Below, piece after piece: positions 3,960 through 64,000 of a stretch of 64,000 bases of DNA. The stretch's first letter is position 1, and each line of letters begins with the position of its first letter. The DNA is from an uncultured Nitrosomonadales bacterium (GTDB lineage: Bacteria > Pseudomonadota > Gammaproteobacteria > Burkholderiales > Gallionellaceae): NCBI GenBank assembly GCA_903915035.1, contig CAIWRI010000078.1:1-64000 (forward strand), read 5' to 3'. The translations under genes were made by a program, and so were the position numbers. The notes under the pieces were generated by a model that was not told where the DNA came from, ran no database searches, and was given only the letters and a program-made list of their open reading frames with translations.

Positions 3960-3972
3960 GAGTGAGAAGAAC

Positions 3973-4962: not shown

Positions 4963-5083
4963 ATAATAAAGCAGATACAAGAAAAACAGGGGCAAGGGGT
5001 AAGGAACATCAAAGAAAAGCTGAGCCTAAGTTTTATGGCGAGTGCGTCACATCAGTTAAAGCAGAAAAGAAAGGCGGCATGCT

Positions 5084-5998: not shown

Positions 5999-6089
5999 TG
6001 CTGTCAATGAACTGGAATGCCGGCGCGCTGAACAGGTTTTATGATTCAGGCGAATATACCGGAAAAAAGTACGCTGCATGATCTGAAAG

Positions 6090-6992: not shown

Positions 6993-7008
6993 TATTCGTT
7001 TAGAATGA

Positions 7009-9591: not shown

Positions 9592-9604
9592 TAGATATCC
9601 TTTA

Positions 9605-11767
9605 TTAATTGGCTGAAATATCAGCCACTTCAAACGTTGCAATACCGGCACGAATCAGGCTGGTCGAAATACCTAGCGCCCAGGCCGCAGCGACTGCCGC
9701 CAGTACATTTTCAAGTTGCGATTGATTGCTTTCGTCAGCCGAAATGGGAACCGCAGCAAGCTTGAGCAGTGCAGTCTCTTCCAGCCCCTCGCAAAGTACA
9801 ATGCGGCCATTTTTAATCAGCACCGCCCGACCGCCTGTCCGTCGATGTTTGGTCACAGCGACCAACTCACTCTCAAGCGCGAAATAAATAACTTCGCCGT
9901 CACAATATCCGGCCATCCCTGCCACCAGCGGATCAGATCCATTGAGCACAGCAACTCCATCGGATAAGACCACATCCACCTGAGTGCGCAACACATTGCA
10001 GACCTGCTCGGTGCTTTCGATGTAAAACTCGCCAAAATGTTTGGCCGGATCAAGATTGGTGATAATACCGATCTGACAGCGATCGTAGCCCAAACCTTCC
10101 GACAGGATGGTTTCGATGCTGTTTTCAATGACTGCCGCATCCACTGAACGGTTCAATAACACTTTTTGTGCAGACGCCCAGTTCGCGCAATCTTTCTTGT
10201 CGGCAAGCCGTTTGTCAAAAAACAGCCCGTCACGACTGGCAAGTCCGGTATAAAACCCCGCCAGTTTTAATAATCTGGTGACGATACGTGCAACCTGCGC
10301 TTTTCCCCGCGTACCGCAGATACCGATGACAGGAATACGTCCTGTTTCCTTATCGGCAAACAGACTGTCGACGATGGCGCGGCCCACCGGGCGCGGCTCA
10401 CCTGACACAGGTTTAAGGTGCATCAGCAAACCCGGGCCGGCATTGATTTCAACGATAGCTCCGCCTTGTTCGGCCAGAGGGCGTGAAATATCTTCGGCGA
10501 CCAGATCAACGCCGGCAATATCAAGACCGACGATACGCACGGCAAGCGACACCATTTCCGCCACCTCGGGATGCACCAGATCGGTAACGTCAAAAGCGAC
10601 ATTGCCGTTGCGCTGAATCAAAATCACCGTACCGGCCGGCGGCACCGATTCCGCTGTATAACCCTGACGTTTTATTTCAAATTGGGCTGCGGTACTTTCA
10701 TTGATATTGACCCTGTCCATGGGAAACTCTTCAGCATCTCCCCTGCGCGGATCACTATTGATCTGTTCCTCAATCAGCAGATTGATCGACGAAATGCCAT
10801 TGGCAATCAGCGATACGCTCTCCCCGCGGGTTGCAGCAGCCAGTTTTCCGCCAACCACCAGCAACCGATGTTCATTGCCGCGGATAAAACGCTCGACGAT
10901 AACCTCGCTGCCTTGTTCATCCGCCAGCACAAAAGCGCGCTCTACTTCTTCACGTGTCATCAACTCGGTAGACACACCGCGCCCGTGGTTGCCGTCGGAC
11001 GGCTTGACGACCACCGGCAAACCGATGTCTTCCGCCGCATCCCACGCATCCTCCGGACTGTCAACGATGCGCCCTTCCGGCACCGGTACGCCGCAGGCCT
11101 GCAGCAGGTTTTTGGTCAAATCCTTATCCTGTGAAATACTCTCGGCGATCGCACTGGTCTGGTCAGTTTCTGCCGTCCAGATGCGGTGCGCATTTTTGCC
11201 ATAACCCAATTGCACCAGATTACCGCCGGTCAGGCGCATCGAGGGAATGCCTCTTTCAGTTGCTGCATCGACGATGCAAGCGGTGCTGGGTCCAAGACAG
11301 AGAGAATCGACCATCTCATTGAGTTTTAAAACGGTGGCAGCCACGTCAAAAGGTTCATCCTGCATCGCCGCGAGTATTAATTCGCGTGCGGCATGCAGCG
11401 CGGCACGAGAAACGGTTTCGTTGCGCGAACGCACAACCACCTTATAAACCCCGCGCACCGACGTTTCACGCGCCTTGCCAAAACCGCTCTGCATCCCCGC
11501 CAGATTTTGCAGTTCGATGGTGACATGTTCAAGAATATGTCCGGGCCAGGTGCCCTCGCGCAAACGTTGCAAAAATCCGCCGCGCTCACCAATGCCGCAG
11601 CGGTGCTCAATCAAGCTTGGCAACCAGGCTGTCAGACGCTCATAAAAACCGGGTATGGTATTGGAAGGAGAATCTTCCAGCACACCGATATCCAGCCAAA
11701 CCTCAAGCACAGGACGATAAGTCCAGATATTCGGACCTTGCAGCGGTAATATTTTGAGAAACTCCAT
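9605..11767 (-). CDS. Cyanophycin synthetase-like paralog (shorter, CphA'-type)
   Basis: MEFLKILPLQGPNIWTYRPVLEVWLDIG...VVVKPSDGNHGRGVS...; Mur-like P-loop region reads GICGTRGKAQVARIV rather than GTNGKTTT. Confidence 0.88.
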   Translation of the reverse strand: MEFLKILPLQGPNIWTYRPVLEVWLDIGVLEDSPSNTIPGFYERLTAWLPSLIEHRCGIGERGGFLQRLREGTWPGHILEHVTIELQNLAGMQSGFGKARETSVRGVYKVVVRSRNETVSRAALHAARELILAAMQDEPFDVAATVLKLNEMVDSLCLGPSTACIVDAATERGIPSMRLTGGNLVQLGYGKNAHRIWTAETDQTSAIAESISQDKDLTKNLLQACGVPVPEGRIVDSPEDAWDAAEDIGLPVVVKPSDGNHGRGVSTELMTREEVERAFVLADEQGSEVIVERFIRGNEHRLLVVGGKLAAATRGESVSLIANGISSINLLIEEQINSDPRRGDAEEFPMDRVNINESTAAQFEIKRQGYTAESVPPAGTVILIQRNGNVAFDVTDLVHPEVAEMVSLAVRIVGLDIAGVDLVAEDISRPLAEQGGAIVEINAGPGLLMHLKPVSGEPRPVGRAIVDSLFADKETGRIPVIGICGTRGKAQVARIVTRLLKLAGFYTGLASRDGLFFDKRLADKKDCANWASAQKVLLNRSVDAAVIENSIETILSEGLGYDRCQIGIITNLDPAKHFGEFYIESTEQVCNVLRTQVDVVLSDGVAVLNGSDPLVAGMAGYCDGEVIYFALESELVAVTKHRRTGGRAVLIKNGRIVLCEGLEETALLKLAAVPISADESNQSQLENVLAAVAAAWALGISTSLIRAGIATFEVADISAN

Positions 11768-49976: not shown

Positions 49977-52007
49977 CTATTCCACACCCAGCGCCTTGAA
50001 CACTGCATCCACGGGATCTGAGTAAAAACTGGTCTGGAATTTTGCAAACAGTTCGCCGGGTACGGTTGGAATATCGGTCACGCTCGACATCGGCAGCAAG
50101 ATACGTTTAGCACCGGCATCAAATGCCACCTGCAAACTTTCTGCCAGGCTGCGTGCCTGTGTAATGGTACCGCCCAGACTCATATCGCCCATCACAACCA
50201 TTTGGCTTTGCATCGATTTGCCCAGTGTTGCCGAACACAGTGCAATGAAGTTGGCGAGCGTCAATGTTTCTGGCGCGCCGGAATTTTGCAACTCGACCAA
50301 ATGTAGATGGTAATCATGGTCTCCGGGCTTGATCGCCCCGCTCACCCGTGACGCATGCGCTTTGAAATAGTCGAACGCCACACGCGATGGCTCTCGGGAA
50401 TGATTGCCGGAAATTGACAGCTTGCCATTGCCGGCGATAGACTGAATTTCCAGTCGATACACACCCGGCATACCATTGACACCGATACTGATGGTGTGCA
50501 ATGTCCCCGGGTTGGGTCTGCCGTCCGGAATCAGCGAACCACCGCCCTGTTCCGGAACCGATATAAAGCGTTCCTGCCCGTCTTCCAGATCAATGTAGCT
50601 GAAATGAACATCGTAAAACTCCATACCGCCGATTTTCTTGAGCTGTTCTTTTATCCGGCGACGTGTTTCAAGCGCATATTCCAGCGCACGGCGCACGCTC
50701 TCCTTGTCGTAAATACCATGAGGACAAGTTAATTTGAGCAGACCGGACACGGTACGACGCACCGCAATCGTATCGCGCTGATTCAGGTTATTACCTAGCT
50801 TGAACCACTTGTCGATGGCATCGGCAAAACTGCGCTTACGCATCTCGCGCATCCATTCCGCCAGATAGTCCACGATCATGCCGTACTGGTTAGTGAAAAA
50901 TTCCGGACGCATTTTGGGGATTTCCCAGCCGGGTACATAGGCATGAAACCGGTCAAAGAAGGCCGAATCAATCATCGCAGTCGGGAACGGTTCCAGCAGA
51001 TGACTGGTTTTAACCATCTGTTCAACTGACTGATTGATGTTACCGACGAACACCATGGACGCGCTGGCATTAATTGATTCACGCCCGCGCGAGAATGAGC
51101 CGCTAGCCATGTAGTCCTTCATGATCTGAATGCCGTCTTGTTCCTTAAAGTTGATACCCGCCACTTCATCGAACGCGACCACATCCCATAAGCCGACCAG
51201 ACCGATCTTGCGCGAACCCATGTTGTAGAACAGATTGGCGACCGTGGTTTGCCCGCCGGACACCAGAATACTGTTCGGGCTGATTTCCTTGTAGATATGA
51301 CTTTTACCGGTGCCACGCGGACCTAACTCACACAGATTGTAGTTGTTTTCCACCAGCGGAATCATGCGTGCCAGTAAATGCCATTTCACCCGCTGAGTAA
51401 AACAGGTAGGCTCCATTCCGGTTGAACGGAGCAGTCCGTCTATCCATTGTTCCCCGGTAAAGCCTTTACGTGCTTCGAACAACGCCTCCATATCCATGTT
51501 AGGCATTTGAATCGGCTTCAAATCCGATATCGAAAACGGTGACCCCTTCTGATTCTCCTCGAAATGATAGCGAATCGTCACGATGCACCAGATTCCGCCG
51601 ACCAGCAGCTTCTCAAAATTGCGCACATCCGAATCAGGAATCTCCGCATCCCGTATCGACAGGTTGGATAGCATCGCCTCGTAGGTATCGCGCTTCTCGT
51701 TCAGCTTGACCGTCACCTTGTCGATGACCTTATAGCTGCCACTCTCGCGGATCTTCGACTTTATCTTCTCCGCTTCATCCGGACGAACGTAGTTTTCCGC
51801 CAGCACCCGCTTCACATTGGTCAAACCTGCCTCGATGGTCGCCGGATCATCGGATGCACAATACATGCCGAGTAAATATTCCAGCACATAGACAGGCACA
51901 TTTGCGCCTTCCTTGATAAGCTTGGTCAGATCCTTGCGGACCACCTTGCCGGGTAGAAATTCGTTCAAAAGCGCATCAAGGCTTTTTTCCTGATTCGAAT
52001 CTATCAT
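49977..52007 (-). CDS. brxL: BREX type 1 Lon-like protease BrxL
   Basis: LGPRGTGKSHIYKEISPN; C-terminal Lon-like MSLGGTITQARSLAESLQVAFDAGAKRILLPMSSVTDIPTVP; 676 aa; adjacent to pglZ. Confidence 0.93.
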   Translation of the reverse strand: MIDSNQEKSLDALLNEFLPGKVVRKDLTKLIKEGANVPVYVLEYLLGMYCASDDPATIEAGLTNVKRVLAENYVRPDEAEKIKSKIRESGSYKVIDKVTVKLNEKRDTYEAMLSNLSIRDAEIPDSDVRNFEKLLVGGIWCIVTIRYHFEENQKGSPFSISDLKPIQMPNMDMEALFEARKGFTGEQWIDGLLRSTGMEPTCFTQRVKWHLLARMIPLVENNYNLCELGPRGTGKSHIYKEISPNSILVSGGQTTVANLFYNMGSRKIGLVGLWDVVAFDEVAGINFKEQDGIQIMKDYMASGSFSRGRESINASASMVFVGNINQSVEQMVKTSHLLEPFPTAMIDSAFFDRFHAYVPGWEIPKMRPEFFTNQYGMIVDYLAEWMREMRKRSFADAIDKWFKLGNNLNQRDTIAVRRTVSGLLKLTCPHGIYDKESVRRALEYALETRRRIKEQLKKIGGMEFYDVHFSYIDLEDGQERFISVPEQGGGSLIPDGRPNPGTLHTISIGVNGMPGVYRLEIQSIAGNGKLSISGNHSREPSRVAFDYFKAHASRVSGAIKPGDHDYHLHLVELQNSGAPETLTLANFIALCSATLGKSMQSQMVVMGDMSLGGTITQARSLAESLQVAFDAGAKRILLPMSSVTDIPTVPGELFAKFQTSFYSDPVDAVFKALGVE

Positions 52008-52016
52008 CGTCCGTTC

Positions 52017-54620
52017 CTAAAAATCATTTGAAAACGCCAGATCCACGCGCAGCGGCAGGCGCATCACTTCCACCTTGGTTTGCACATCACGCGCTATCAG
52101 GAAATAATCTTTGTTGCGGTCATAGCTTCCCGATCTCACGGTCAGAATCACGGTGCGTTTACGGCTATCCATCAAATCCGAATCGCTATCAAAGGTCAGC
52201 GATTGCTCGTCACTGATAAATTCCTCGCCATCGCGCAGAGAAATCTGCACCATGCGTGGCAGTATGCGTGCTGAAACAGCCTCATCCTGAATAAACTCGA
52301 ATCGTTGCCGGTTAGTCACCACTTTAATCGACGCACCTAGGATACTGAAGTTTACGAAGCGCGTCTTTGCCTTATCCGATTCACTGGCACGCAAGGTAAT
52401 CACCGGCACAACCACTTCCTGCGGCATCGCACTACCATGCACAAATCGCGCACCACCGGCAAAATGAAAACGTGCAGCCCCCTTGGGCAACCAGAAGTCC
52501 ATACTGCCGTCGCCGGGCTCAGTGCCCGCCGTGACCGATGTGTTTCCACACCAGGCTTTACTGTTCACGCCAATACCTTGACCTATCAAATAGCGTTTTT
52601 TAGCTTTCAATATGCCAGCAGGCTTTTCATCCAGCGTCGATTTATCTGCAACTTCTAGCGCCGACTCCTGATACATAAAGCCGTGATCTGCCGTCAGTAA
52701 AACAACCGAACCATTCAGGCTGTTGATGATGAAAGTAGCCAGCCTTCCCAACTCCTCCAGCGCATCATTAACCGCTGCAAAGGTCTTGGTCTCCGATGCC
52801 TGCTTATCACCGATCATGTCAATCAGGTCGTGGTAGATATACACCAGTTGCTGGTCACGAACGAATTCACGCCCCTTGTCTTTACCCAGTGCCAGCAAAT
52901 CTTCGGCTTTAATCGCCACGCCGCCATATTTCTCAAGATGAGCATTACGTTGTTCGCTGGTCGAAACGATAACGCCATCTGCACTTAAATCGCAATTGCC
53001 ATTCAGTTTATATGCCAGCTTGTTATGAGGCAGCAGCGATGCCATACCCAACGCAGTGTAACTTGGCAGCACGCCGAGCATGGCCGACAAGGAAGCCTTC
53101 AGACGGTTGCGGCTATTGATGATTCGCGTCAACTCTTCGGCGGCCTCGTAACGGAATGCGTCCGAAATCACAACGAACACCCGCTTTGCGCCACCGTCCA
53201 GCACGGGTTTAACATGCTTTACATAGAAGTCAGGCTGATTGATTAGCTCTTCAACTTTCCACTTTCCTAACAGACCATTTTCACCTTCCAGCACTTTGCA
53301 CCATGCGGATGTCAGTTGCGGAATAAACCAGCCGGAATAAGCACTTTCAATCCGTTCAATCAATTCGTGCAGCACAGCCCAGCCCATCGGTTCAACAGCG
53401 GAAGCAGCAAAATTGAACTGACGATACAGTTGGTCAAAACGAAAAAGTTCAGTTTGATACGCCGTCAATCCTTCGGTTGCATTGGCAAAACTGAATCCTG
53501 CCTCATGTGCGGCCTTTAGTTCAAAGAAGCCGTGTGCCGCTTCCAGCGCATCATAGCTCGCAGCCAGTGCGCGGGTAATATCGTTATCCTGAGCCAGCAG
53601 GCGATTAGCCCAATGACCATCGCGGCGGCGCGCCATCAACGAGCGTACTACATTCGATTCAGCGCCCGAGGCGGCGATAATTTGATCCTTGATATGCTTG
53701 ATGATGCGCTGCTCAACCACCGCGAAGGTCATCACATCAGAGAGTGCCGCGCCTGACAGACTACCCAGCATCCCGGCAATATCCAATTCTTTGGCTATCT
53801 GCTCAGACAAGGCGTTATAGCTGGCAAAATGCGCCATATCTGAACGCCACCGGGCAACGAATACCGCTGCATTCGCTGTTTTATTGGGCAAAACGAAATG
53901 AGCGAGTTGACCGGGGCAATTGCCGGACAATGAGCGTGTAAAATCCGTCACCAGCAAGTGAATCAATAAGTCCGGCAATGAAGGCGTGGATTGGACGTAG
54001 CCAAACTCACACTCGATATTTGACCAGAGGGCCAATTCCAGCTCATTACCCTGAATCTCCAACCATGGCCGGGACTCAATATTCAAGTCAGCCATGCCTT
54101 CCACCACCAACCCTGAAAACAAACGAAGCAATATCGCTGTCAGTTCAGGTTGATCCGCACGCGCCAGCACCGCCAGCATCTTGCGGTCGATATCTTCTGC
54201 CGTATCGGTTGGCACGACCAGTCGCTTGAGTTTCTCAACACGATCTTTAGCGCGCAGAAATTTGGCACGCAGCTTCAAATGCGCTCGCAATGTTTGCGAT
54301 GTCAACCCCAAGTCTTCCAGCAGAATGGATGCGGCATCGGCACTGAACGATTTGCTGCGCAGGCGAATGTCCAGCAGCCAATCTTTGGTGAGTTCAGGTT
54401 CCGGCTTATTGCTGTAGAGCAGCCATTTTTGCTTTGGTGCGTGTTCGATATCCAGCTTAACTTTGAGCGCAGGAAGATTATCAGTGCGCACTACCTGTAC
54501 GCCAGGCAATGGAAGGCTATCTACGACAGATGAAAATTCGGCATCGACATCGTGCCAAAACACCACGGCGTTATTAGCATACAGTGCAGAAAGGGAGTCT
54601 ACGATTCGTTGAGTGCTCAA
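52017..54620 (-). CDS. pglZ: BREX phosphatase PglZ
   Basis: RVFVVISDAFRYEAAEELTR and NGSVVLLTADHGFMYQESALEV; 867 aa. Confidence 0.93.
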   Translation of the reverse strand: MSTQRIVDSLSALYANNAVVFWHDVDAEFSSVVDSLPLPGVQVVRTDNLPALKVKLDIEHAPKQKWLLYSNKPEPELTKDWLLDIRLRSKSFSADAASILLEDLGLTSQTLRAHLKLRAKFLRAKDRVEKLKRLVVPTDTAEDIDRKMLAVLARADQPELTAILLRLFSGLVVEGMADLNIESRPWLEIQGNELELALWSNIECEFGYVQSTPSLPDLLIHLLVTDFTRSLSGNCPGQLAHFVLPNKTANAAVFVARWRSDMAHFASYNALSEQIAKELDIAGMLGSLSGAALSDVMTFAVVEQRIIKHIKDQIIAASGAESNVVRSLMARRRDGHWANRLLAQDNDITRALAASYDALEAAHGFFELKAAHEAGFSFANATEGLTAYQTELFRFDQLYRQFNFAASAVEPMGWAVLHELIERIESAYSGWFIPQLTSAWCKVLEGENGLLGKWKVEELINQPDFYVKHVKPVLDGGAKRVFVVISDAFRYEAAEELTRIINSRNRLKASLSAMLGVLPSYTALGMASLLPHNKLAYKLNGNCDLSADGVIVSTSEQRNAHLEKYGGVAIKAEDLLALGKDKGREFVRDQQLVYIYHDLIDMIGDKQASETKTFAAVNDALEELGRLATFIINSLNGSVVLLTADHGFMYQESALEVADKSTLDEKPAGILKAKKRYLIGQGIGVNSKAWCGNTSVTAGTEPGDGSMDFWLPKGAARFHFAGGARFVHGSAMPQEVVVPVITLRASESDKAKTRFVNFSILGASIKVVTNRQRFEFIQDEAVSARILPRMVQISLRDGEEFISDEQSLTFDSDSDLMDSRKRTVILTVRSGSYDRNKDYFLIARDVQTKVEVMRLPLRVDLAFSNDF

Positions 54621-54663
54621 TCAGGTAACCTCTTGTTAAATTAGTAAAACAGCTTGTTACACT

Positions 54664-54690
54664 ATTTGTGCAAGCAGTGCTTGCACAAAT
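54664..54690. promoter_or_regulatory. Perfect 12-bp inverted repeat with 3-nt loop upstream of pglZ
   Basis: ATTTGTGCAAGC-agt-GCTTGCACAAAT in the only sizeable gap of the pglX-brxL block. Confidence 0.6.
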
Positions 54691-54725
54691 TGCTATTCAT
54701 CTGTTTTTATTGTTGCTACCAGAAC

Positions 54726-55304
54726 TTAAGAGCCAACCAATTTGATAAATTCATCATGAAACAGCTTCACGCTTGGGCAAGCTGGATGTTCAGCAGCACT
54801 GGCAATCGTAAAGCCATAATGTTTGCACATTTTTTTTGCGAATCCCGGCTTGTTACTACCCGGGCCACGTCTTTCTTTCTCTTTAGCTAGTTCCTTCAAT
54901 CGGTCCCAGGGCATCCCGACAGTATCTTCTGGCAAGTCTTCCTGCACATCCGGTAGTTTCAGCCACGATTGCAAAGCTTTACTATCCGCCAGAAACCAAG
55001 CTTCAATGGCCTTCACAGCAACAAAAATGAGATTGGTATGTTCCGTGCCAATGCGTTCCGTCACCACTGCAACACTTGATGCATTTTCAAGGTCAGTCAA
55101 AATCACAATATGATCCGGGCTTGAACGCTTTAGTTGTATTACCATCGGAATAATATTCTGTGGTAAAAGATTACCACCTCCTTTAGCATCAATCACGGGC
55201 GAGCAAATTTCGATGCCTTGGCTTTTGGCCCAGCTTTGAAAAGCGGGAGATTCCACTACAATTTTTTCAGTGTCACCCTCCACGATAAAACCTACTTTTA
55301 CCAT
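54726..55304 (-). CDS. TOPRIM/DUF4276-like protein, partner of the upstream ATPase (cassette 1)
   Basis: VKVGFIVEGDTEKIVVE...HIVILTDLENASS...KAIEAWFLADSKAL. Confidence 0.65.
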   Translation of the reverse strand: MVKVGFIVEGDTEKIVVESPAFQSWAKSQGIEICSPVIDAKGGGNLLPQNIIPMVIQLKRSSPDHIVILTDLENASSVAVVTERIGTEHTNLIFVAVKAIEAWFLADSKALQSWLKLPDVQEDLPEDTVGMPWDRLKELAKEKERRGPGSNKPGFAKKMCKHYGFTIASAAEHPACPSVKLFHDEFIKLVGS

Positions 55305-56410
55305 GGCAAACCACCATCAAAGAAGTTCATCAGCCAAGCAGTATCAAGGTTTAAATTACCAAGATCACCACTATGCTGTGCGGCATTTTTAACCACTGTC
55401 TTACCATCCTCTTTATTGACCAACCAAAGCTCCTCTTTGGTGGAAGCTCGAACCAAAGACTCGCTGTGCGTTGTCACTAATACAGGATGCTCTGAGCTGG
55501 CATTATCCCGCATCAACCGTACAAGTTCCGCAATGGCCTTCGGATGAATACCACGCTCAGGCTCTTCAATCAGCGTCAACCCATATCCCTTGGCACGACT
55601 TAGCACAGCAGCCATGATGCACAGCGCATAGATTGTTCCATCTGAAATCAAATTTGCCGGAAAATGTGCCTTTGTACCCTCCTCCTTAAACTTGATGATT
55701 GTTCTTCCATCCAAGCGTTGCTGTTCTGTGCCAACACTTTCCATTCCGGGAACCAGCAACTCCATCCAATCTATAATTTCAGAACGGATTTCCGTATTTT
55801 TTTCCAATGCAGCCAGGATGGTCGCCACATTATGACCAAACGGACTCAATTCACTACCATCGGTACTTGAAGCATCCGGTTCCTTTGCGCCCAAGGGATC
55901 GAACCTAAATACGCGAATATTGATCAAGTATTGGTAAAGTGCTGACTGGGGTAATAACATCAAGCCTGACATTTCCGAAGGAAAGTTCGGTACTTGGACC
56001 AAGTTTCCATCAACCGCTTGCACCTGAGGAGGCTCTCCTTTCTTTCTAAGTAATACGGGTTTGCCATCAATTAACAACTTTTCCTCAAGCGATGGCATGG
56101 TATCCATCTCATGAACCTTCAAGGTGTAGTCAATACGTTCATCCGTCATGCTCGCAACAATAGAAAACTCAAATGTGCGGGCGTTATTCCCCCGGAGTTT
56201 GTAGCAGTGCAACTGAGGATATCCATTAAACTTACGTATGGCTGCACTTGCTCCAGATTGAATAACTAGACTAACGAAGGCTAGTGAATCCGCTAAATTA
56301 CTTTTTCCAGCCCCATTGGGGCCAGCCAGAACGCTATATGGTGAAAGTTGCGCAAGGGATAAATTGGCGATACTTTTAAAACCGCTGATCTTGATCTGCT
56401 TAATTTTCAT
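55298..56410 (-). CDS. RecF/OLD-like AAA ATPase (cassette 1)
   Basis: IKISGFKSIANL, LAGPNGAGKSNLADSLAFVS, LTLIEEPERGIHPKAI, VLVTTHSESLV. Confidence 0.88.
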   Translation of the reverse strand: MKIKQIKISGFKSIANLSLAQLSPYSVLAGPNGAGKSNLADSLAFVSLVIQSGASAAIRKFNGYPQLHCYKLRGNNARTFEFSIVASMTDERIDYTLKVHEMDTMPSLEEKLLIDGKPVLLRKKGEPPQVQAVDGNLVQVPNFPSEMSGLMLLPQSALYQYLINIRVFRFDPLGAKEPDASSTDGSELSPFGHNVATILAALEKNTEIRSEIIDWMELLVPGMESVGTEQQRLDGRTIIKFKEEGTKAHFPANLISDGTIYALCIMAAVLSRAKGYGLTLIEEPERGIHPKAIAELVRLMRDNASSEHPVLVTTHSESLVRASTKEELWLVNKEDGKTVVKNAAQHSGDLGNLNLDTAWLMNFFDGGLPW

Positions 56411-56565
56411 TCTTCTTCCTTTCCGCCCGTCACCGCTTTTACATCAGATAATAAGTCGCCAAACTTGCCGTAATTTACCTTAACGCCATCGTCCAGATCC
56501 AGTTGGATGCGCATGTCGGCATAGTGACGGAGCTGTTCGTCGAAGTTGGTCTGTGATTGACTCAT
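56407..56565 (-). CDS. Standalone duplicate of the PglX C-terminal tail (tail copy 1)
   Basis: MSQSQTNFDEQLRHYADMRIQLDLDDGVKVNYGKFGDLLSDVKAVTGGKEEE*; ATG overlaps the previous gene stop (ATGA) and its stop overlaps the next ATG (ATGA). Confidence 0.8.
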   Translation of the reverse strand: MSQSQTNFDEQLRHYADMRIQLDLDDGVKVNYGKFGDLLSDVKAVTGGKEEE

Positions 56566-57380
56566 GCCAGCAACCCCATTGCCTGCCATAGAACATTCAG
56601 GTCAGCGGGCACCGTACGTGTTCGCAAAATGGCAAGGCGACGCTCCTTTGCCGGCTTTTGGCCCAGCAGACGATTCAACACCTGATGCACGACCTGCGGA
56701 TAAAAGTCTTTCGCATAAAGCCATTGGGCACAGAGTTTGCTCACGTCTTCAGAAGCCAGCTTTGCTTCCAAAGCATGCACACCATTCAAAACCGCATCGG
56801 CATCCAGTGTTCCATGCCACTCCTTGAATTTGACTCTAAGTGCAGCATCGTCCGGCATGGGCGGACTGCCAAGCACCGCATCAGGGAAACCCATGTTTCG
56901 AAGCTGTCGCCACAGCGGACGAACACCATGCCAAAGCGCTGCATGCCTCACCCAACCCTGCAGATCAGTCAATAACTCAAGACGAAACTGTGCCTCGCCA
57001 CCTGCAATCTTTGCCCGTTGCTTTTCCGGGAAGGCGGCCCACAGTTCCGGCGGATCAATCAGATAACTCTCAAGACAAAAGCGCGGCAAGACCGACAGGT
57101 TAGGACACGCAGCCTGTTTCTCTACAATATCTGCCTCAGTCCATTCATCACGGTCAACCAAGCCCTGCCAATGTGGCTCCTTCATTAACATCTTGACGAC
57201 ATCAGACTTGTTGCCAGCGGCGACCAGAAGCCATGTCTTTTCCCATTCAGGAAACTTGCGCCCCAGGAAAATGCGAAACGCATCGACATCATCGGTTCCC
57301 TCAACCAGAAGGACACGCAGGCCGGCTTTTCCAATGAACTGCGTTTTGATCTGCTTGATGCGCTCCTCCAGCGCACTCAT
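56562..57380 (-). CDS. DUF4435/TOPRIM-like protein, AriB-like (cassette 2)
   Basis: GLRVLLVEGTDDVDAFRIFLGRKF...VLPRFCLESYLIDPPELW. Confidence 0.65.
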   Translation of the reverse strand: MSALEERIKQIKTQFIGKAGLRVLLVEGTDDVDAFRIFLGRKFPEWEKTWLLVAAGNKSDVVKMLMKEPHWQGLVDRDEWTEADIVEKQAACPNLSVLPRFCLESYLIDPPELWAAFPEKQRAKIAGGEAQFRLELLTDLQGWVRHAALWHGVRPLWRQLRNMGFPDAVLGSPPMPDDAALRVKFKEWHGTLDADAVLNGVHALEAKLASEDVSKLCAQWLYAKDFYPQVVHQVLNRLLGQKPAKERRLAILRTRTVPADLNVLWQAMGLLA

Positions 57381-58432
57381 GTGACGCCCCCAAGCTCAAT
57401 ACGCTTACCGGATGCCTCGTAACGCTGCCATATGTCAGGCTGATGGGACGTAATGATAAGTTGCCCGCCAATGTCCGCCACCAACTTTTCAAGACTGGAC
57501 AACAAGCCATTCACCAAGGAAGGGTGCAGATACAAATCCGGCTCGTCAATCAGAATCACCGCACCTTTTTCCGCCCAGCGTGCCAGCAGGTACAACAAGA
57601 TCAACACTTGGTGTTCTCCCGCGCTCAAATCATCCAGTCCATGCGATTGACCACGCTTATTTTTTAACTTCACACTTAAACGGTTTTCACCGGGTTGAAT
57701 GTCCGGGTCTATCTCTTTTCCTGACAAAAAACCATTCAGCAAGCGAACAATCTCGTGGTACTTGTGCAACTGTGTGGTTTTGAGCGTAATGAGGTAGGCT
57801 TCTAACTGATCCTTCCAATCTTCACTCGCCAGGTACTTGGGCAACCAACGCCTGCCTGGTAACTCAGCTGTGTGATCGCCTACATTACGCCGTGCAGCAA
57901 CCCAGCGACGTTCCTCAGCATCCAAAAACACCACGTTAGGCACATCCACCTTATCGAATGACAAGATCATTTTTTTGCGCGCATCGGCCCACTCTTGAAC
58001 CCACGGTTCTGATGGAAGAAAAACTTCCCGTTTTGGGTTGCCCGGCTTACCTGTGCGTGCTACACCTTCACCCAGCCATTGCACATCGGTGTGCTGGGAA
58101 CGCATGGACTCACACCAAGCCAAGTCACCAAAAATCAACCCTATAACTTGACCATCGCTTGGCACTCCACTCAACACCACGGCACATCCACCCCAGCGTT
58201 GCAGCCACTCGCGAGCCACATGACTTTTAGGAAGTGACTTACGCTGATCCAACCAAAAGCCCAATGCGTCCCAAAGCATTGCCACTGCGCGCAATACGGT
58301 GGATTTACCGCAACCATTGGGGCCAGACAGCAAAGCGCGGGCTTCAACACTGTCGTCCCAATCGTTGACGAAGTTGATACAGTTGTCACCAAACGGCCCA
58401 ACATCCTTGAAATACAAAGAGTTAATTTTCAT
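57377..58432 (-). CDS. AAA ATPase, AriA-like (cassette 2)
   Basis: LLSGPNGCGKSTVLRAVAMLWDALG, LDDLSAGEHQVLILLYLLARWAEKGAVILIDEPDLYLHPSL, LIITSHQPDIW. Confidence 0.85.
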   Translation of the reverse strand: MKINSLYFKDVGPFGDNCINFVNDWDDSVEARALLSGPNGCGKSTVLRAVAMLWDALGFWLDQRKSLPKSHVAREWLQRWGGCAVVLSGVPSDGQVIGLIFGDLAWCESMRSQHTDVQWLGEGVARTGKPGNPKREVFLPSEPWVQEWADARKKMILSFDKVDVPNVVFLDAEERRWVAARRNVGDHTAELPGRRWLPKYLASEDWKDQLEAYLITLKTTQLHKYHEIVRLLNGFLSGKEIDPDIQPGENRLSVKLKNKRGQSHGLDDLSAGEHQVLILLYLLARWAEKGAVILIDEPDLYLHPSLVNGLLSSLEKLVADIGGQLIITSHQPDIWQRYEASGKRIELGGVT

Positions 58433-58641
58433 TCTTCTTCCTTTCCGCCCGTCACAGCTTTTACATCAGATAATAAGTCACCAAACTTACCATAATTCAC
58501 CTTCACACCATCATCAAGATCGAGCTGGATGCGCATGTCGGCATAGTGGCGAAGTTTTTCGTCATAGGCTAACAGCTCGACGTGTTTTTTGCGCATTGTC
58601 GCACTATTGAATATGCTGCCTGAAGTAGCCCATTTATTCAT
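58429..58641 (-). CDS. Standalone duplicate of the PglX C-terminal tail (tail copy 2)
   Basis: MNKWATSGSIFNSATMRKKHVELLAYDEKLRHYADMRIQLDLDDGVKVNYGKFGDLLSDVKAVTGGKEEE*; stop overlaps the next ATG. Confidence 0.8.
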   Translation of the reverse strand: MNKWATSGSIFNSATMRKKHVELLAYDEKLRHYADMRIQLDLDDGVKVNYGKFGDLLSDVKAVTGGKEEE

Positions 58642-58649
58642 GGCATGGA

Positions 58650-59390
58650 TCAATGAATGACTTCACTTAATGCACGCTCCAACTCCAGTTTAAATGCCTT
58701 GAAACTTGGCATAAACGAGGCTCTCGCTTCATCTATCGGGTTCTCGTCCAACCACTCACAGAGTTCATTGGCGGATTTATGTGCGCCGAATGCCGCATCA
58801 AGTTTCTTCTTGGGATGATTGGCAGACTCTACGTTGCCCGGTAACTCTTCGAGTTTGCGGCAATTTTGATAAGGTTTATTTTGTGCGGCACACAATAACC
58901 AAGCTTCCGAAGTCGGCTTTGGTAGCATTGGTACACCTCTGGAAAATTCAGCCCTGTTAAATCCATTCACCATAGCGTCCCACTTCGTCTCCCAAATTCC
59001 AGACATGGTAGATCGCGTTCCATCGCAGTCACGAAACAGCACGGCAAGAACCTGATCTTCACGTTCAGATTCAATTTGCAAGGCAATATCCGCAAGCATC
59101 CATGCGTTGATGTAAAAATATCCAGTTTCTTGAGCTCGTTTTTTACCAACGAAGGAAAAACTTCGATGCTCTTTCTTGCGTGCTTCCTCTCGCTCTTCTA
59201 ATGCGGCCTTACCAACATATTGATATCCACCCGGTATAGAACACAACGAGTAATCCAAACGAGATTCAAGCATCTGATCCAAGAGCACAGTCATAGGGCC
59301 AATCTGCAAGTCTCCATCCGAACAATTGCCCTGAGCATTATTACATTGCCCCAAATCGGTTGGGCCTTCCCCACTCAACACGACAATCAT
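58650..59390 (-). CDS. DUF4276/TOPRIM-like protein (cassette 3)
   Basis: MIVVLSGEGPTDLGQ...VLAVLFRDCDGTRS...PKPTSEAWLLCAAQ. Confidence 0.6.
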   Translation of the reverse strand: MIVVLSGEGPTDLGQCNNAQGNCSDGDLQIGPMTVLLDQMLESRLDYSLCSIPGGYQYVGKAALEEREEARKKEHRSFSFVGKKRAQETGYFYINAWMLADIALQIESEREDQVLAVLFRDCDGTRSTMSGIWETKWDAMVNGFNRAEFSRGVPMLPKPTSEAWLLCAAQNKPYQNCRKLEELPGNVESANHPKKKLDAAFGAHKSANELCEWLDENPIDEARASFMPSFKAFKLELERALSEVIH

Positions 59391-60559
59391 TCCTTGGCCT
59401 CTGCCTCGGCACGTTGCCTTTCGGCGAAATCATCCGCGTCATCCAGCGCGATACATTCCTCGGTAAGCTGTACCAGGTCGGTATCAACAAATGCCTCACC
59501 TGCGCCCATAAATTTGAGCTTCTTCCCAATGTTCGGAATCTCAAAGAACCGGCGTATGCGGCTTAAGCCAGCGGTATTCTTATAGACGTACTGTACAGAC
59601 TTCCGCGCTTCATCATCTTCCAAATAATTCAAAATCATCGGACTATGTGTCGTCACAATAATTTGCTGTTGAGCATTCACTAATATATCAACCAACTTTT
59701 CGATTATTTCAGGATTGATGCCATTCTCGATCTCGTCCAGCAAAACTAGCGGATGATCAGATTCTGCCTGAGCCAAAATCGCTAATATTCGCAACACCCC
59801 ATCGCTCAAGTGCGTTGCTTCCGTTTCCAGAGTTTGTTCTCCGAACTGTTCAACCACCATGAGTTTTTTCCAACCAGCCCGCATACTTGCAACCCTGAAG
59901 TCAATCAGATTTGGGTAAAACAACTTTAATAACACCAGTAAGTGAGCTTTCGCATCTCCTTTTATGTTATGTAGGAAACCAGAAAGTTTTTCCCCACCCG
60001 CACCGATGTCCTTATCATCTGTTCTTGCACGCTTGCGCAGCAAATGCGGAGAAAGTAACTCCAACGAACGGGTACGTCTGAGTACATCACGAAATTCCAG
60101 AATTGATGGCGGAAGCTCACTATCCTTGAGTTGAGAAATAATTGAGCCTTGAAAAATAAATGAAATTGGCTGTTTTCGTCCTTCAGTGTGGTACTCGTGC
60201 CCACGGGAAGTAAAAATAAGTTCATTATCTAATTGGACTCTTTCCCACGAACAGCGCAAGTCAGAGCGGTTAAAGCCAGCATGCCAATTCAGAAGTTGTC
60301 CCGCCTGAGTACGATATTGGACTCGTATGAGTATATTGCTTGCCTTGAAAAGTTTGCAGTTCAAATCCTGTGCTGTCCAGCCACGGGAATCCAGCCAACT
60401 CAATACATTGCCAGTCATTAACTGAGAAATGAAATCGATCCCTTGGAGTATCGTGCTTTTACCCACCCCATTCATCCCGATAAAACAATTGAATTTACTG
60501 AGTGGAAAAGCCAGATTTCCAGCAGACTTAAAATTGGTTATGAATATATTTTCAATCAT
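59387..60559 (-). CDS. RecF/OLD-like AAA ATPase (cassette 3)
   Basis: IFITNFKSAGNLAFPL, CFIGMNGVGKSTILQGID, PLVLLDEIENGINPEII, IIVTTHSPMILNYL. Confidence 0.87.
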   Translation of the reverse strand: MIENIFITNFKSAGNLAFPLSKFNCFIGMNGVGKSTILQGIDFISQLMTGNVLSWLDSRGWTAQDLNCKLFKASNILIRVQYRTQAGQLLNWHAGFNRSDLRCSWERVQLDNELIFTSRGHEYHTEGRKQPISFIFQGSIISQLKDSELPPSILEFRDVLRRTRSLELLSPHLLRKRARTDDKDIGAGGEKLSGFLHNIKGDAKAHLLVLLKLFYPNLIDFRVASMRAGWKKLMVVEQFGEQTLETEATHLSDGVLRILAILAQAESDHPLVLLDEIENGINPEIIEKLVDILVNAQQQIIVTTHSPMILNYLEDDEARKSVQYVYKNTAGLSRIRRFFEIPNIGKKLKFMGAGEAFVDTDLVQLTEECIALDDADDFAERQRAEAEAKE

Positions 60560-63500
60560 CAGAACTACCTCCAGTCACTGCTTTTACATCAGATAATAAG
60601 TCGCCAAACTTGCCGTAGTTCACCTTCACGCCATCGTCCAGATCCAGTTGGATGCGCATGTCGGCATAGTGGCGGAGTTTTTCGTCGTAGGCTAACAGCT
60701 CAACATGTTTCTTGCGCAGCACTTCGATTTGTTTGTTGATCTTGTTACGGGCAGCGGTCACAGTGGCGGCGTCACGATCCTTGGTCAGCATCTCGATACG
60801 TGACTGGATTTTACTGGTCAGCGGCACGACATATTCGGCGCGCATCCGCGCAAGGGTGCCTTCGTGATAACGATGCAGATAGACCAGTGCCTGAAACGCT
60901 CCTTGCTTACCGCTGGAGAACAGCCAGTAGATCGGGCGTTTCTTGTACATTTGCAGGTGATTCTTGTAAAAGCTGGTCGCGAGATAACGGCGGATAGTTT
61001 CTTCCAATGTTTCGTTGCCCTTCATACCCAGACTTTCCGCCAACCACTGTAGATTAGTGGCAAGTAGTGAGTGGTTAGTGGTCAGTGGCGAGTGGTCAGA
61101 AAGACAGTGGTCAGTGGTCAGTGGCGAGTGGCCAGAAAGACAGTGGTCACTAATCACTGTTTCTCCACTAGTCACTGAACACTGGTCACTAATCACTGCT
61201 TCTCCACTGGTCACTGAACACTGGTCACTAATCACTGTTTCTCCACTGTTCACTGTTTCTCCACTGTTCACTGTTTCTCCACTAATCACTGTTTCTCCAC
61301 TGTCCACTGCCTTGTCTCCCCATACGGCCAGCAGGAATTCGCTGATACGATTAGCGGCATCATCCTCAAACCAGAACTCGTCGGTAAGCGGCACGATACC
61401 ATCGGCGTCGGCGGGGAACAGATTTTGTAGGGGCGAATTCATTCGCCCTTGGGCGGATAAATCCGCCCCTACCCCATTGTAGATTTCCCAGAACCGTTCA
61501 TTTCCCGAATGCGCGTAAATCAACCCCGGCCTATCCAGTCGATACCGCCCCATCATGCAACCGATAGCATAGGAGATCAGGCGCTGGCAATCTTTCTCGC
61601 GGTCGGCACGAGCGAGGGTGATCTGTTCTTCGGGAACTTCGGGGGACAGTTCGTCTTGCAGACCGTAGGCTTCGATGAAAATGCGGTTGTTTTGTTCTTC
61701 CAATGTTTTCGTTATGCTAATATTGTCATTTAACACTAATAGCCAACTATTCCACGTCGCCTCAATACTTTTGCATTTTATGGGGGTTGCCACCAAAGGG
61801 TTATAAATATAATCCCATGAAGTTTCTACCCAATCCCAGTCTTGTTTCGCTAAATCAACAATTGTTGAAGTATTGGATTCAATTTCTTCAAAATAGGGTT
61901 CCAGTAAAGTTAGATTAAATGGCAATGCTGCGATATTACCTGGCTGAAAATTTAAAGTAGGGTTTATAGAACACAAAAATTCAAACGTCGGTTTTGCAGA
62001 CAAAAATGCCAAAACGAGATTGTGAAATTTTTCATCAGGAAATGCTGATGAGCCACCATTATCAAACAAAAAACCTTTTTCGCACTTTCGAGCACTAAAG
62101 AATGCTGAAGTAACTGCTGACCAAGTTACTGACGGCTTGAAATACTTGTCCCTATTAATTATTCGTCCGGTAGAGTTAACCTTCGAGCCGGACACTAAAT
62201 CTATATAGTCACATATTGTTTTTCCATTATTTTCATAATTAATGACATACATATTGTTGCCATACCATTTTTTAAAACCACCACCTTTATTGTATGGAAA
62301 AAACTTCTTATTACTTGCAAGTGCTTCCGGTGCAGTCCCATAACCAAATCCTATTTTCTGGATAGAAACCTCAGACCAATTTCGAACAAATAATTCATTC
62401 TTTGTTGTGTTCATCCCCGCACAAGGTCGAGTGAAGGCACCTAAAGAAGAGCTTTTTTCAAATATGTCACGAACCGCATGCCCTAACCAATATGCCACAG
62501 GACTTCCCGGAATTTTTTTAAAATCATCCGGCTTCACTATTTTGAGACGATTATTTTGAACGGGAAATTTTAAAGGAACCCCCTCTTCGTTTACATCATC
62601 ATTTTTACAGTATGAAAAGCTACCCTCATAAGCATCAATGTGCTTATTCCAAAATATGGTAGCAGCGGTACCAAATGCAATGCCCATTACCCCATTGCCC
62701 ATATGTACCATACAATAGAGCGTTTTTTTACCTAGTAAATTATTCCGCATCACTTCAAACGACGACAAGAACATCCAGCTCTGCATCGTTACCATGCTAT
62801 TCAAACCTGTTGCTTTGCACCAACCAAAGCCACGTTCGATAAACATAGCAAACAAATCAGCCTTACTATTTGGAAATCGCTCCCCTGAAAAACTCTTTAA
62901 CTCAGGGTTCATCCCCTTACCGCCCATATACGGCGGATTCGCTACAACAGCATCAAACTGCATTCCCAGAACTTTCGCCTGCCCAACCAGCGGCAACAAC
63001 TGTTGTACTGCCGACTCGGAGAGCAGATCGCCGTTCTTGATAGCCAGCTGCAAGCTCTCCGCCATCGTCGCCAGTTTTACATTCAACGCCTGCGGGATTT
63101 GTATCAACGAGCCGAAGGTCTTTGCATGAGTGAAGGTATCGATCAGCATGCGTACGGCTTGAGCTTCCTCAGACACGGCACGGACGGAGCTGTTTGATTT
63201 CAATGCTGGTGACTCGTCAAAGCTCATTTGCGGACGACTGCCGGGAAAGAGATCGTCATCCCCGAAGCCACTCGTTAACGCCTTTGCGGACAAGGGAAAT
63301 AAAGCCTGAACGATTGCATCCACATCCAGCCCACGACTCTCCTGCAAAGCCAGCACATTGAGAGTTGGCGGATTATCGAGCAGACGGCGATCATCGGCAC
63401 GAGCCTTCATCAGCAATGCAAATCCAGCCAGTTGCGCGGCGCGATCATCGATATCCAGACCGAAAAGATTCTTTTCCAGAATCAGACGGGGAATGTCGCG

Positions 63501-64000
63501 TAAACGATAGCCGCGTTCCAGATAGATACCCTTCAGTACCTCATATCCTTCAACCAAAATGTGACCGGAGCCGCAGGCAGGATCGAGCATCGTGATAGTT
63601 TCAGGATTCAGACTGCCGCCATCTTCACCCATGCGAGTCTGAATAAGCGCATCCAACTGAGCCTGAACTTCCGGCGTTTGCTCGGCAGGTTCTATGTAAT
63701 AAGCCCATTCACTCTTCAGCGTTGAAGCAGGATTCGCCATCAACCACAGGCGACCGACGCTGTTTTGCACAAGATATTTAACAATCCAGTTAGGGGTAAA
63801 TAGCTGGGTGGCGGCGGGAATATCCTCGCTCTTAACCACTTTGCCGATCACTTCATCCTTCTTCTCACTGATGTAAAACTGGTACAGCCAACCGATAATC
63901 TCGACTTCCTGCCAGTCTTCTTCGGGAATAGCAGCTACCAGCTTGGCGATGACTGAATCAGTGCGCAACAGATTGTCCGGCAACAGCAACTCGGTTTCAT
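60552..64000 (-). CDS. pglX: BREX adenine-specific DNA methyltransferase PglX (5' part beyond the window)
   Basis: LDPACGSGHILVEGYEVL and VVANPPYMGGKGMN; frame remains open to the window edge past the ORF-track TTG. Confidence 0.93.
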   Translation of the reverse strand, partial: ETELLLPDNLLRTDSVIAKLVAAIPEEDWQEVEIIGWLYQFYISEKKDEVIGKVVKSEDIPAATQLFTPNWIVKYLVQNSVGRLWLMANPASTLKSEWAYYIEPAEQTPEVQAQLDALIQTRMGEDGGSLNPETITMLDPACGSGHILVEGYEVLKGIYLERGYRLRDIPRLILEKNLFGLDIDDRAAQLAGFALLMKARADDRRLLDNPPTLNVLALQESRGLDVDAIVQALFPLSAKALTSGFGDDDLFPGSRPQMSFDESPALKSNSSVRAVSEEAQAVRMLIDTFTHAKTFGSLIQIPQALNVKLATMAESLQLAIKNGDLLSESAVQQLLPLVGQAKVLGMQFDAVVANPPYMGGKGMNPELKSFSGERFPNSKADLFAMFIERGFGWCKATGLNSMVTMQSWMFLSSFEVMRNNLLGKKTLYCMVHMGNGVMGIAFGTAATIFWNKHIDAYEGSFSYCKNDDVNEEGVPLKFPVQNNRLKIVKPDDFKKIPGSPVAYWLGHAVRDIFEKSSSLGAFTRPCAGMNTTKNELFVRNWSEVSIQKIGFGYGTAPEALASNKKFFPYNKGGGFKKWYGNNMYVINYENNGKTICDYIDLVSGSKVNSTGRIINRDKYFKPSVTWSAVTSAFFSARKCEKGFLFDNGGSSAFPDEKFHNLVLAFLSAKPTFEFLCSINPTLNFQPGNIAALPFNLTLLEPYFEEIESNTSTIVDLAKQDWDWVETSWDYIYNPLVATPIKCKSIEATWNSWLLVLNDNISITKTLEEQNNRIFIEAYGLQDELSPEVPEEQITLARADREKDCQRLISYAIGCMMGRYRLDRPGLIYAHSGNERFWEIYNGVGADLSAQGRMNSPLQNLFPADADGIVPLTDEFWFEDDAANRISEFLLAVWGDKAVDSGETVISGETVNSGETVNSGETVISDQCSVTSGEAVISDQCSVTSGETVISDHCLSGHSPLTTDHCLSDHSPLTTNHSLLATNLQWLAESLGMKGNETLEETIRRYLATSFYKNHLQMYKKRPIYWLFSSGKQGAFQALVYLHRYHEGTLARMRAEYVVPLTSKIQSRIEMLTKDRDAATVTAARNKINKQIEVLRKKHVELLAYDEKLRHYADMRIQLDLDDGVKVNYGKFGDLLSDVKAVTGGSSDD
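61053..61311. repeat. In-frame variable short repeat block (18-, 36- and 39-nt units) inside pglX
   Basis: AGTGGTCAGTGGCGAGTGGTCAGAAAGAC... and CACTAATCACTG(T/C)TTCTCCACT... units; encodes GETVNS, DHCLSxHSPLTT, SDQCSVTSGEAVI repeats. Confidence 0.9.
61427..61472. repeat. 46-bp double-hairpin palindromic repeat inserted in-frame in pglX
   Basis: GTAGGGGCGAATTCATTCGCCCTTGGGCGGATAAATCCGCCCCTAC; encodes GVGADLSAQGRMNSPL. Confidence 0.85.

What the first reader, a model, noticed from the sequence alone, without database searches (positions are those of the whole stretch)
54726..60559. Three different ATPase + TOPRIM-like pairs stacked in one BREX operon
Three consecutive pairs (59387-60559/58650-59390, 57377-58432/56562-57380, 55298-56410/54726-55304) share one layout: ATPase first, overlapping small TOPRIM/DUF4276/DUF4435-like effector second. 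The proteins are too diverged to be simple duplicates. The layout recalls two-gene OLD/Gabija/PARIS-type defences, suggesting BREX acts as a chassis for interchangeable abortive-infection modules, perhaps triggered by anti-BREX proteins.
Basis: partly seen in the sequence, partly recalled or inferred. Interest (0 to 1): 0.88.

Follow-up and report, generated by a model that had tools for sequence, protein, structure and literature searches.

The report
Stacked BREX cassettes with pglX scars
A bacterial antiviral (BREX) operon carries three different two-gene defence pairs stacked in one slot, and the second and third pairs are each preceded by a copied fragment of the neighbouring methyltransferase gene's end, which suggests how such add-on defences are loaded, kept translated and moved between genomes.

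Summary
The three ATPase+effector pairs are real and lie between pglX and pglZ of a type 1 BREX operon (Gallionella-like bacterium): PDC-M25A/B, a PARIS-like AriA/AriB, and HEC-01A/B. BREX as a host for such pairs is already published. What is new is what joins them. Each pair follows a pglX 3' end: the gene's own, then two partial copies (identical protein over ~37 residues, DNA 76-85% identical). The copies are short ORFs whose start overlaps the previous effector's stop and whose stop overlaps the next ATPase's start. Of 71 pglX-pglZ slots, 13 of 54 cargo-bearing ones hold such fragments (13 of 28 slots of 2 kb or more, 0 of 26 smaller). Some are chimeras beginning with the pglZ start. Three pairs at sites without detected BREX neighbours also follow a pglX tail; one is bounded by 110 nt of pglX and 33 nt of pglZ. 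Best reading: cargo travels with the slot's edges, and in-frame scars act as translational relays. Coupling and recombination are inferred, not shown. TOPRIM is supported for pair 2, likely for pair 3, unresolved for pair 1. All relay-bearing slots come from metagenome or draft assemblies.

The parts
60552..63989 (-). pglX, BREX-1 methyltransferase; the part inside the window (the full ORF of 1323 aa runs on to about 64523 of the contig)
   Evidence: NCBIfam BREX_1_MTaseX 1201.6 bits, cut-off 500; full ORF in L009
60548..60718 (-). pglX 3' end, the reference tail; it contains the ATG of pair 1
   Evidence: repeat family D1; ATG embedded 8 nt before the end of the pglX stop codon
59387..60559 (-). 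pair 1 ATPase, PDC-M25A
   Evidence: PADLOC 527 bits
58650..59390 (-). pair 1 effector, PDC-M25B; fold unresolved
   Evidence: PADLOC 325 bits; structure
58429..58653 (-). relay ORF 1: TTG start overlapping the pair 1 effector stop, then a copy of the pglX tail (repeat copy 58425-58595), stop overlapping the pair 2 ATPase start
57377..58432 (-). pair 2 ATPase, AriA-like (PARIS)
   Evidence: PADLOC AriAB 5.9e-27, AriA 5.9e-21
56562..57380 (-). pair 2 effector, AriB-like (TOPRIM type by profile)
   Evidence: PADLOC AriB 5.8e-12
56407..56565 (-). relay ORF 2: ATG start overlapping the pair 2 effector stop, then a copy of the pglX tail (repeat copy 56403-56573), stop overlapping the pair 3 ATPase start
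55298..56410 (-). pair 3 ATPase, HEC-01A
   Evidence: PADLOC 534 bits
54726..55304 (-). pair 3 effector, HEC-01B (DUF4276-like, probable TOPRIM)
   Evidence: PADLOC 282 bits; VIA-align to OLD Z 7.9
52017..54620 (-). pglZ (type A), right edge of the slot
   Evidence: TIGR02687 986 bits, cut-off 270
49977..52007 (-). brxL
   Evidence: TIGR02653 1138 bits, cut-off 628

Best explanation
The pglX-pglZ gap of type 1 BREX is a cargo slot whose left edge is the 3' end of pglX and whose right edge is the 5' end of pglZ. In most of the loci examined the pglX 3' end itself contains an ATG that can start the next gene, so cargo would be translated by coupling to pglX. Cargo pairs therefore move with a piece of pglX tail, and sometimes a piece of pglZ head, attached. 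When a new pair enters an occupied slot, the old edge stays behind as a scar: a short ORF made of whatever start followed the incoming cargo, fused in frame to the old pglX tail. Such relay ORFs would carry ribosomes from one pair to the next. Here pair 1 sits behind pglX itself, and pairs 2 and 3 each sit behind a relay. Shown by sequence: the tail copies, their overlaps, chimeras with pglZ starts, recurrence in other genomes, tail-bearing pairs at sites without detected BREX neighbours. Inferred: translational coupling, recombination as the loading route, and that the three pairs act as backup (abortive-type) defences.
For: 171-nt repeat = pglX 3' end before each ATPase gene. 15 tail fragments (score 54 or more, control maximum 42) in 13 of 54 slots of at least 400 nt; 13 of 28 slots of 2 kb or more versus 0 of 26 smaller. 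11 of 15 fragments are in frame with a start that overlaps the previous stop by exactly 4 nt (ten, L074); ten of those eleven overlap the next start. Counting related loci once, 9 of 10 events are in frame, P=3.6e-4 against one in three. Chimeras of PglZ start and PglX end in L045, L047, L054 and L093. An ATG 8 or 4 nt before the end of the pglX stop codon in 58 of 71 loci. HEC-02-type pair in L142, with no BREX gene detected in 14 kb, aligned with BREX locus L143 over 1,706 nt that begin 110 nt before the pglX stop and end 33 nt inside pglZ; M25A/B behind a tail in L113 and another ATPase pair behind a tail in L141, likewise without detected BREX neighbours.
Against: All 13 slots with fragments are metagenome or draft assemblies (13 of 44 such slots, 0 of 10 isolate slots, P=0.095). 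Stacks without tails exist (L034, L057, L068). E. coli and plasmids show almost no tail copies (368 places in 367 records; 241 places in 239 records). L062 and L047 scars are not coupled in frame, and L035 has a 26-nt gap downstream. The tails at the sites without BREX in L141 and L142 are frameshifted or decayed. The sources of the 5' parts of the window's own two relays are unknown. No expression data.
Confidence: 0.6

Rival explanations
1. Passive scars only. The tails are leftovers of homologous recombination at pglX, or of internal deletion of tandem pglX copies. The ORFs are open because they are recent or inherited from pglX, and coupling is unimportant.
For: Lengths of the copies vary while the 3' end is constant. 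L031 keeps a PglX start after its cargo (score 80, control maximum 40). The synonymous bias of the copies is like that among pglX genes and may predate copying. L047, L141 and L142 scars are frameshifted or decayed.
Against: 11 of 15 fragments keep an exact 4-nt start/stop overlap in frame with the tail, ten of them also overlap the next start, also when the 5' part comes from another gene.
Confidence: 0.25
2. Functional peptides. The relay ORFs make PglX C-terminal micro-proteins that act as decoys or adapters, linking each ATPase/effector pair to the state of PglX, for instance to attack by an anti-BREX protein.
For: Relay 1 has 17 synonymous and 1 nonsynonymous codon differences from its own pglX over 50 codons. 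The function of the PglX C-terminal region is described as unknown in PMC11341690 (passages).
Against: The retained length varies from about 20 to 60 residues, and L045, L047 and L054 keep only about 20 PglX residues behind a PglZ start. L051, L072 and L074 pool 13 synonymous to 15 nonsynonymous differences (a subset chosen after seeing the data). Stacks without tails exist.
Confidence: 0.08
3. Ordinary BREX accessory genes. Three unrelated defence pairs were acquired at a known hot spot, and the tail copies are an incidental local duplication of no wider meaning.
For: The slot and such pairs are known (PMC11341690 passages; PMC12839542 sections 17 and 35 part 1). Stacks without tails exist: L034, L057, L068.
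Against: Tail fragments are tied to large slots (13 of 28 versus 0 of 26), occur in several families (titles) and accompany pairs at sites without detected BREX neighbours.
Confidence: 0.06

Closest known systems
OLD-ABC/TOPRIM backup effectors in BREX loci (PMC12839542; sections 17 and 35 part 1 read)
   Same: ATPase plus small effector pairs inside the BREX operon, proposed as backup suicidal effectors
   Different: Nothing on pglX tails, relays, chimeras or pairs that left BREX with slot edges (terms searched in the main text)
PARIS inside BREX (Salmonella StySA / D23580; PMC9009780 and PMC11341690, passages)
   Same: AriA/AriB-type pair between pglX and pglZ
   Different: One pair only, no tail copy reported; the window's AriB is a distant relative (5.8e-12)
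BREX with BrxU in the same slot (PMC11341690 passages; PMC8565348 searched for five terms, none found)
   Same: Accessory defence gene between pglX and pglZ
   Different: Single gene, no scars reported
PADLOC candidate systems PDC-M25, HEC-01 and HEC-02
   Same: Pairs 1 and 3, and the L143 pair, match these models over their whole length
   Different: The models define pairs only; nothing in them about BREX slot edges
Gene cassettes of integrons (recalled, not looked up)
   Same: Stacked cassettes with a shared boundary element
   Different: No integrase among the genes of the slot; the boundary is a gene end of variable length

Membership tests
BREX type 1 | PglX, PglZ type A and BrxL present in order | tested here: met
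   NCBIfam cut-offs passed for all three
BREX type 1 | brxA, brxB and brxC upstream | not tested
   A 1204-aa ORF lies upstream of pglX on the contig (L009); no family search was run on it, and the contig ends at 71894
PARIS | AriA ATPase followed by AriB effector | tested here: met
   AriAB 5.9e-27 and AriB 5.8e-12; distant, and no PDB chain was matched at E<=1
PARIS | Triggered by Ocr-type proteins, tRNA cleavage by AriB | not testable with these tools
   Needs bench work
PDC-M25 | Both components by full-length profile | tested here: met
   527 and 325 bits
HEC-01 | Both components by full-length profile | tested here: met
   534 and 282 bits
TOPRIM effector, pair 3 (HEC-01B) | TOPRIM fold | tested here: inconclusive
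   VIA-align OLD entries at ranks 2-5, Z 7.4-7.9, and PARIS 8ux9_A Z 6.7; Foldseek nothing at E<=0.001; one good model of five
TOPRIM effector, pair 1 (M25B) | TOPRIM fold | tested here: inconclusive
   Best OLD row Z 5.6 behind lumazine synthases at Z 7.2; invariant GEG and DxD positions in 14 sequences
TOPRIM effector, pair 2 (AriB-like) | AriB profile match with TOPRIM-type E and DxD motifs | tested here: met
   AriB 5.8e-12; invariant E27-G28 and D76xD78 in 10 sequences; reading these as TOPRIM motifs is recalled knowledge; no structure was predicted
Integron cassette array | Integrase gene with the cassettes | tested here: not met
   None of the nine proteins from brxL to pglX matches an integrase family in Pfam, PADLOC or NCBIfam; the rest of the genome was not searched

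The most novel reading that the evidence does not exclude
The pglX 3' end is a transplantable adapter. It carries ribosome-binding signal, start codon and recombination homology, so that defence pairs bounded by pglX tail and pglZ head behave as plug-in cassettes that can be stacked, lost by recombination between tail copies, and exported to sites outside BREX, with relay micro-ORFs keeping the whole stack translated as one unit.
Probability: 0.35. Interest if true: 0.8.

Novelty: new variant of a known kind. Interest (0 to 1): 0.66.

Why it matters
Accessory genes between pglX and pglZ are very common in BREX, but how they get in, stack and stay expressed is not explained in the papers seen here. 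Scars with defined edges are a record of cargo movement, show which pairs once lived in BREX, give a search handle for new defence pairs (a pglX tail away from BREX), and make loading and translational coupling directly testable.

Tried and rejected
Rejected: simple duplication of one pair (effectors unrelated). Rejected: chance repeats (control scans). Tried without result: PDB sequence search with the three effector profiles, no match at E<=1; Foldseek for both models, nothing at E<=0.001; papers on PDC-M25 or HEC-01 (only unrelated hits) and on Hma-embedded/DUF4276 with BREX/PADLOC (none). Searches for prior reports of tail copies or relays: with term searches inside PMC9009780, PMC8565348 and PMC12839542. 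Nothing was found, but only open-licence PMC texts are held and most of the listed papers were not opened.

Dropped before counts: two L078 matches (scores 48 and 40) and one L074 micro-fragment (score 44), all below the cut of 54 that I set after seeing the control maximum of 42; three loci without PglZ (L029, L042, L043). L081 has no pglX body (tail only) but is inside the 71 slots. L030, L031, L032, L033, L037 and L038 are the same loci as relatives L021, L026, L022, L024, L025 and L027. For the in-frame test, L030 and the first L054 copy were left out because no upstream stop could be assigned (11 of 13, P=2.1e-4; 11 of 14 would give 6.9e-4). One search had an error for L098 and was replaced. 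The match in G1191 (E 4e-4) looks like chance: it lies in the region of a 369-aa ORF.
Full report
WHAT IS THERE. The finding's six ORFs are present as described. They lie between pglX and pglZ of a type 1 BREX operon on the minus strand; PglX, PglZ type A and BrxL pass NCBIfam cut-offs. Pair 1 is PDC-M25A/B, pair 2 is AriA/AriB-like (PARIS), pair 3 is HEC-01A/B. The effectors have no detectable similarity to one another, so the pairs are best read as separate acquisitions, not duplicates. The host belongs to a Gallionella-like genus: the near relatives named are mostly Gallionella, Gallionellales and Gallionellaceae records.

THE REPEAT. A repeat search of 52000-64000 gave one long family: 171 nt at 60548-60718, 58425-58595 and 56403-56573. 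It is the 3' end of pglX. The first copy is pglX itself; the other two are short stand-alone ORFs. From LRHYADM to VTGG the protein is identical in all three. Over 42 codons copy 1 (58425-58595) has 14 nt and 0 aa differences from pglX, and copy 2 (56403-56573) has 15 nt and 4 aa differences. The stretch GACTTATTATCTGATGTAAAAGC is identical in all three, and all seven genus relatives differ from it there, encoding AEVKAV instead of SDVKAV. The starts overlap the preceding effector stop by 4 nt (TTGA, ATGA), and the stops overlap the next ATPase start (ATGA).

THE SLOT IN RELATIVES. Of 199 related genomes, 8 (own genome included) match the tail, and only the own genome has extra short-frame copies (it also has a second, distant pglX-like frame on contig 134). 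The seven relatives hold other cargo in the slot, among it a YhcG-type nuclease and Shedu SduA (families), unnamed genes, and M25A/B in two of the seven, L021 and L023.

HOW COMMON. A scan of genome contigs with the tail alignment returned 73 loci. With the window, 71 slots have both a pglX-type tail end and a pglZ start; slot size runs from -8 to 9,614 nt, and 54 are at least 400 nt. Searching each slot with its own last 60 PglX residues gave 15 fragments scoring 54 or more, where the best score in two controls per slot (reverse complement, reversed sequence) was 42. They fall in 13 slots: the window (2), L030, L035, L045, L047, L051, L054 (2), L062, L064, L072, L074, L078, L093. Fragments occur in 13 of 28 slots of 2 kb or more and in 0 of 26 slots of 400-2000 nt. 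In an order-wide sample of 399 genomes, 9 had a tail match (own included), and one besides the own had a short-frame copy (G602).

RELAY STRUCTURE. Eleven of the 15 fragments are in frame with a start codon that overlaps the previous stop by exactly 4 nt: ten, plus L074, where the previous ORF is itself a 49-aa remnant. Ten of these eleven overlap the next start by 4 or 8 nt; L035 does not (26-nt gap). The other four are L030 (tail fused to the end of a 504-aa cargo ORF), L047 (frameshift), the first L054 copy (decayed context) and L062 (not coupled). Counting related loci once, 9 of 10 events are in frame (P=3.6e-4 against one in three). In 58 of 71 loci the pglX end contains an ATG 8 or 4 nt before the end of its stop codon, and 28 of these 58 have a Shine-Dalgarno core at a suitable distance, against 261 of 2,700 random slot positions; pglX ends are G-rich, so part of this contrast is composition. 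This gives a reason why a cargo gene would be selected to keep a pglX end in front of it.

CHIMERAS. In L045, L054 and L047 the scar begins with 20-29 residues of the PglZ start and runs into the PglX end (PglZ scores 103, 134 and 85; control maximum 39). In L093 it begins with a PglZ-like start that matches the window's PglZ best (47, tied with L063; control maximum 33). The L064 scar begins like the SduA gene of L021 (by eye; SduA). L031 keeps a PglX start after its cargo (score 80; control maximum 40). The simplest reading is that two slots were joined, leaving the right edge of one fused to the left edge of the other. The sources of the 5' parts of the window's own relays are unknown.

PAIRS WITHOUT BREX NEIGHBOURS. 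Genome samples turned up tails with no pglX body. L113 (genome G390): a 29-aa ORF with the tail, then M25A/B, downstream of a gene that looks like a cobalamin adenosyltransferase (by eye); tblastn with the window's BREX proteins found only the tail and the M25 pair (and its ATPase relative) in these 20 kb. L114 (G254) shares the site and the tail but lacks M25A/B. L141 (G875, a 4.72-Mb contig): a frameshifted tail before a two-gene ATPase pair, with 312-nt repeats 99% identical on both sides. L142 (G936): a decayed tail, then a pair like that of L143 (HEC-02 type), then an ORF that starts like PglZ and continues as a methyltransferase. L142 and the BREX locus L143 (G970, same family) align at 81.2% over 1,706 nt, from 110 nt before the end of pglX to 33 nt inside pglZ: that is the slot with its two edges. 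In some searches the tail profiles found no other tail at E<=0.001 in G390, G875 or G936; whole contigs were not read, so BREX elsewhere in these genomes is not excluded.

SELECTION. Codon differences between ten copies and their nearest pglX are 73 synonymous to 30 nonsynonymous, against 625 to 187 among pglX genes (P=0.18); random change would be about 80% nonsynonymous. This does not separate function from ancestry, since divergence may predate copying. Of ten copies compared, four are nearest to their own pglX (window copy 2, L062, L064, L078), window copy 1 ranks its own second, and five rank it 7th to 38th: some scars look home-made, some imported.

EFFECTORS. AlphaFold models: M25B pLDDT 86.8; HEC-01B 79.7, with only one of five models good. 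Foldseek gave no PDB match at E<=0.001 for either. For HEC-01B, VIA-align put four OLD C-terminal entries at ranks 2-5 (Z 7.4-7.9) and PARIS 8ux9_A at Z 6.7; the tool warns that Z under 8 may mean only a common arrangement. For M25B, OLD came only at Z 5.6, behind lumazine synthases. So TOPRIM is likely for pair 3 and open for pair 1.

MECHANISM. Most likely the slot's cargo is translated by coupling through a chain of overlapping ORFs that begins in pglX; cargo comes with edge pieces; in-frame scars are kept because breaking them would uncouple what follows and expose the message to polarity (polarity of a stop codon inside a BREX operon is reported in passages of PMC9009780). The pairs themselves probably act as backup abortive systems, as PMC12839542 proposes for such pairs. 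None of this was tested at the bench. In the window the chain ends at the pair 3 effector: a gap of 105 nt separates it from pglZ.

LIMITS. All slots with fragments are from metagenome or draft assemblies (13 of 44 such slots, 0 of 10 isolate slots, P=0.095; the sorting into isolate and other was mine, from record titles). Misassembly is an unlikely source of diverged, in-frame, overlapping copies, but isolates are needed. E. coli (366 of 5,426 genomes with a match, 368 places in 367 records) and plasmids (239 records, 241 places) show almost no second places. L034, L057 and L068 stack pairs without tails.

Noticed in passing
window 61056-61310: Tandem repeats (families D2 and D3) lie inside pglX and encode a run of SGETVIS-like units; the relatives' PglX alignments skip about residues 897-952 there, so this looks like an in-frame repeat insertion in this pglX.
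   Followed up: no
window 54665-54689: A 25-nt inverted repeat (arms of 12 nt, TTTGTGCAAGCA) lies in the gap between the pair 3 effector and pglZ (sequence): a possible operator or terminator.
   Followed up: no
L028 (G000:C134:25000-44999), 3173-10372: The same genome has a second BREX-like locus with a split pglX: a 747-aa N-part, a 989-aa gene, then a 662-aa C-part, followed by a Schlafen-type gene, an ATPase pair, pglZ and brxL.
   Followed up: partly
L081, 6882-12159: In this Accumulibacter contig pglX is gone except for its tail, which follows brxC directly; M25A/B and pglZ remain.
   Followed up: partly
L114 (reverse complement), about 9530-9715: Where the sister site L113 has M25A/B, a short stretch with inverted-repeat ends (AAGGCTCTTAACGGATTCCTAGG) stands right after the ATPase start codon, like a small mobile element.
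   Followed up: no
L009 4748-5698: A 316-aa gene lies between the upstream 1204-aa ORF and pglX on the window's contig; its start resembles AbiEii-type nucleotidyltransferases (from memory, no family search).
   Followed up: no
CP104730.1 (Ligilactobacillus salivarius plasmid): The only row with two places among the 60 listed for the PglX tail; not examined, possibly two pglX genes.
   Followed up: no
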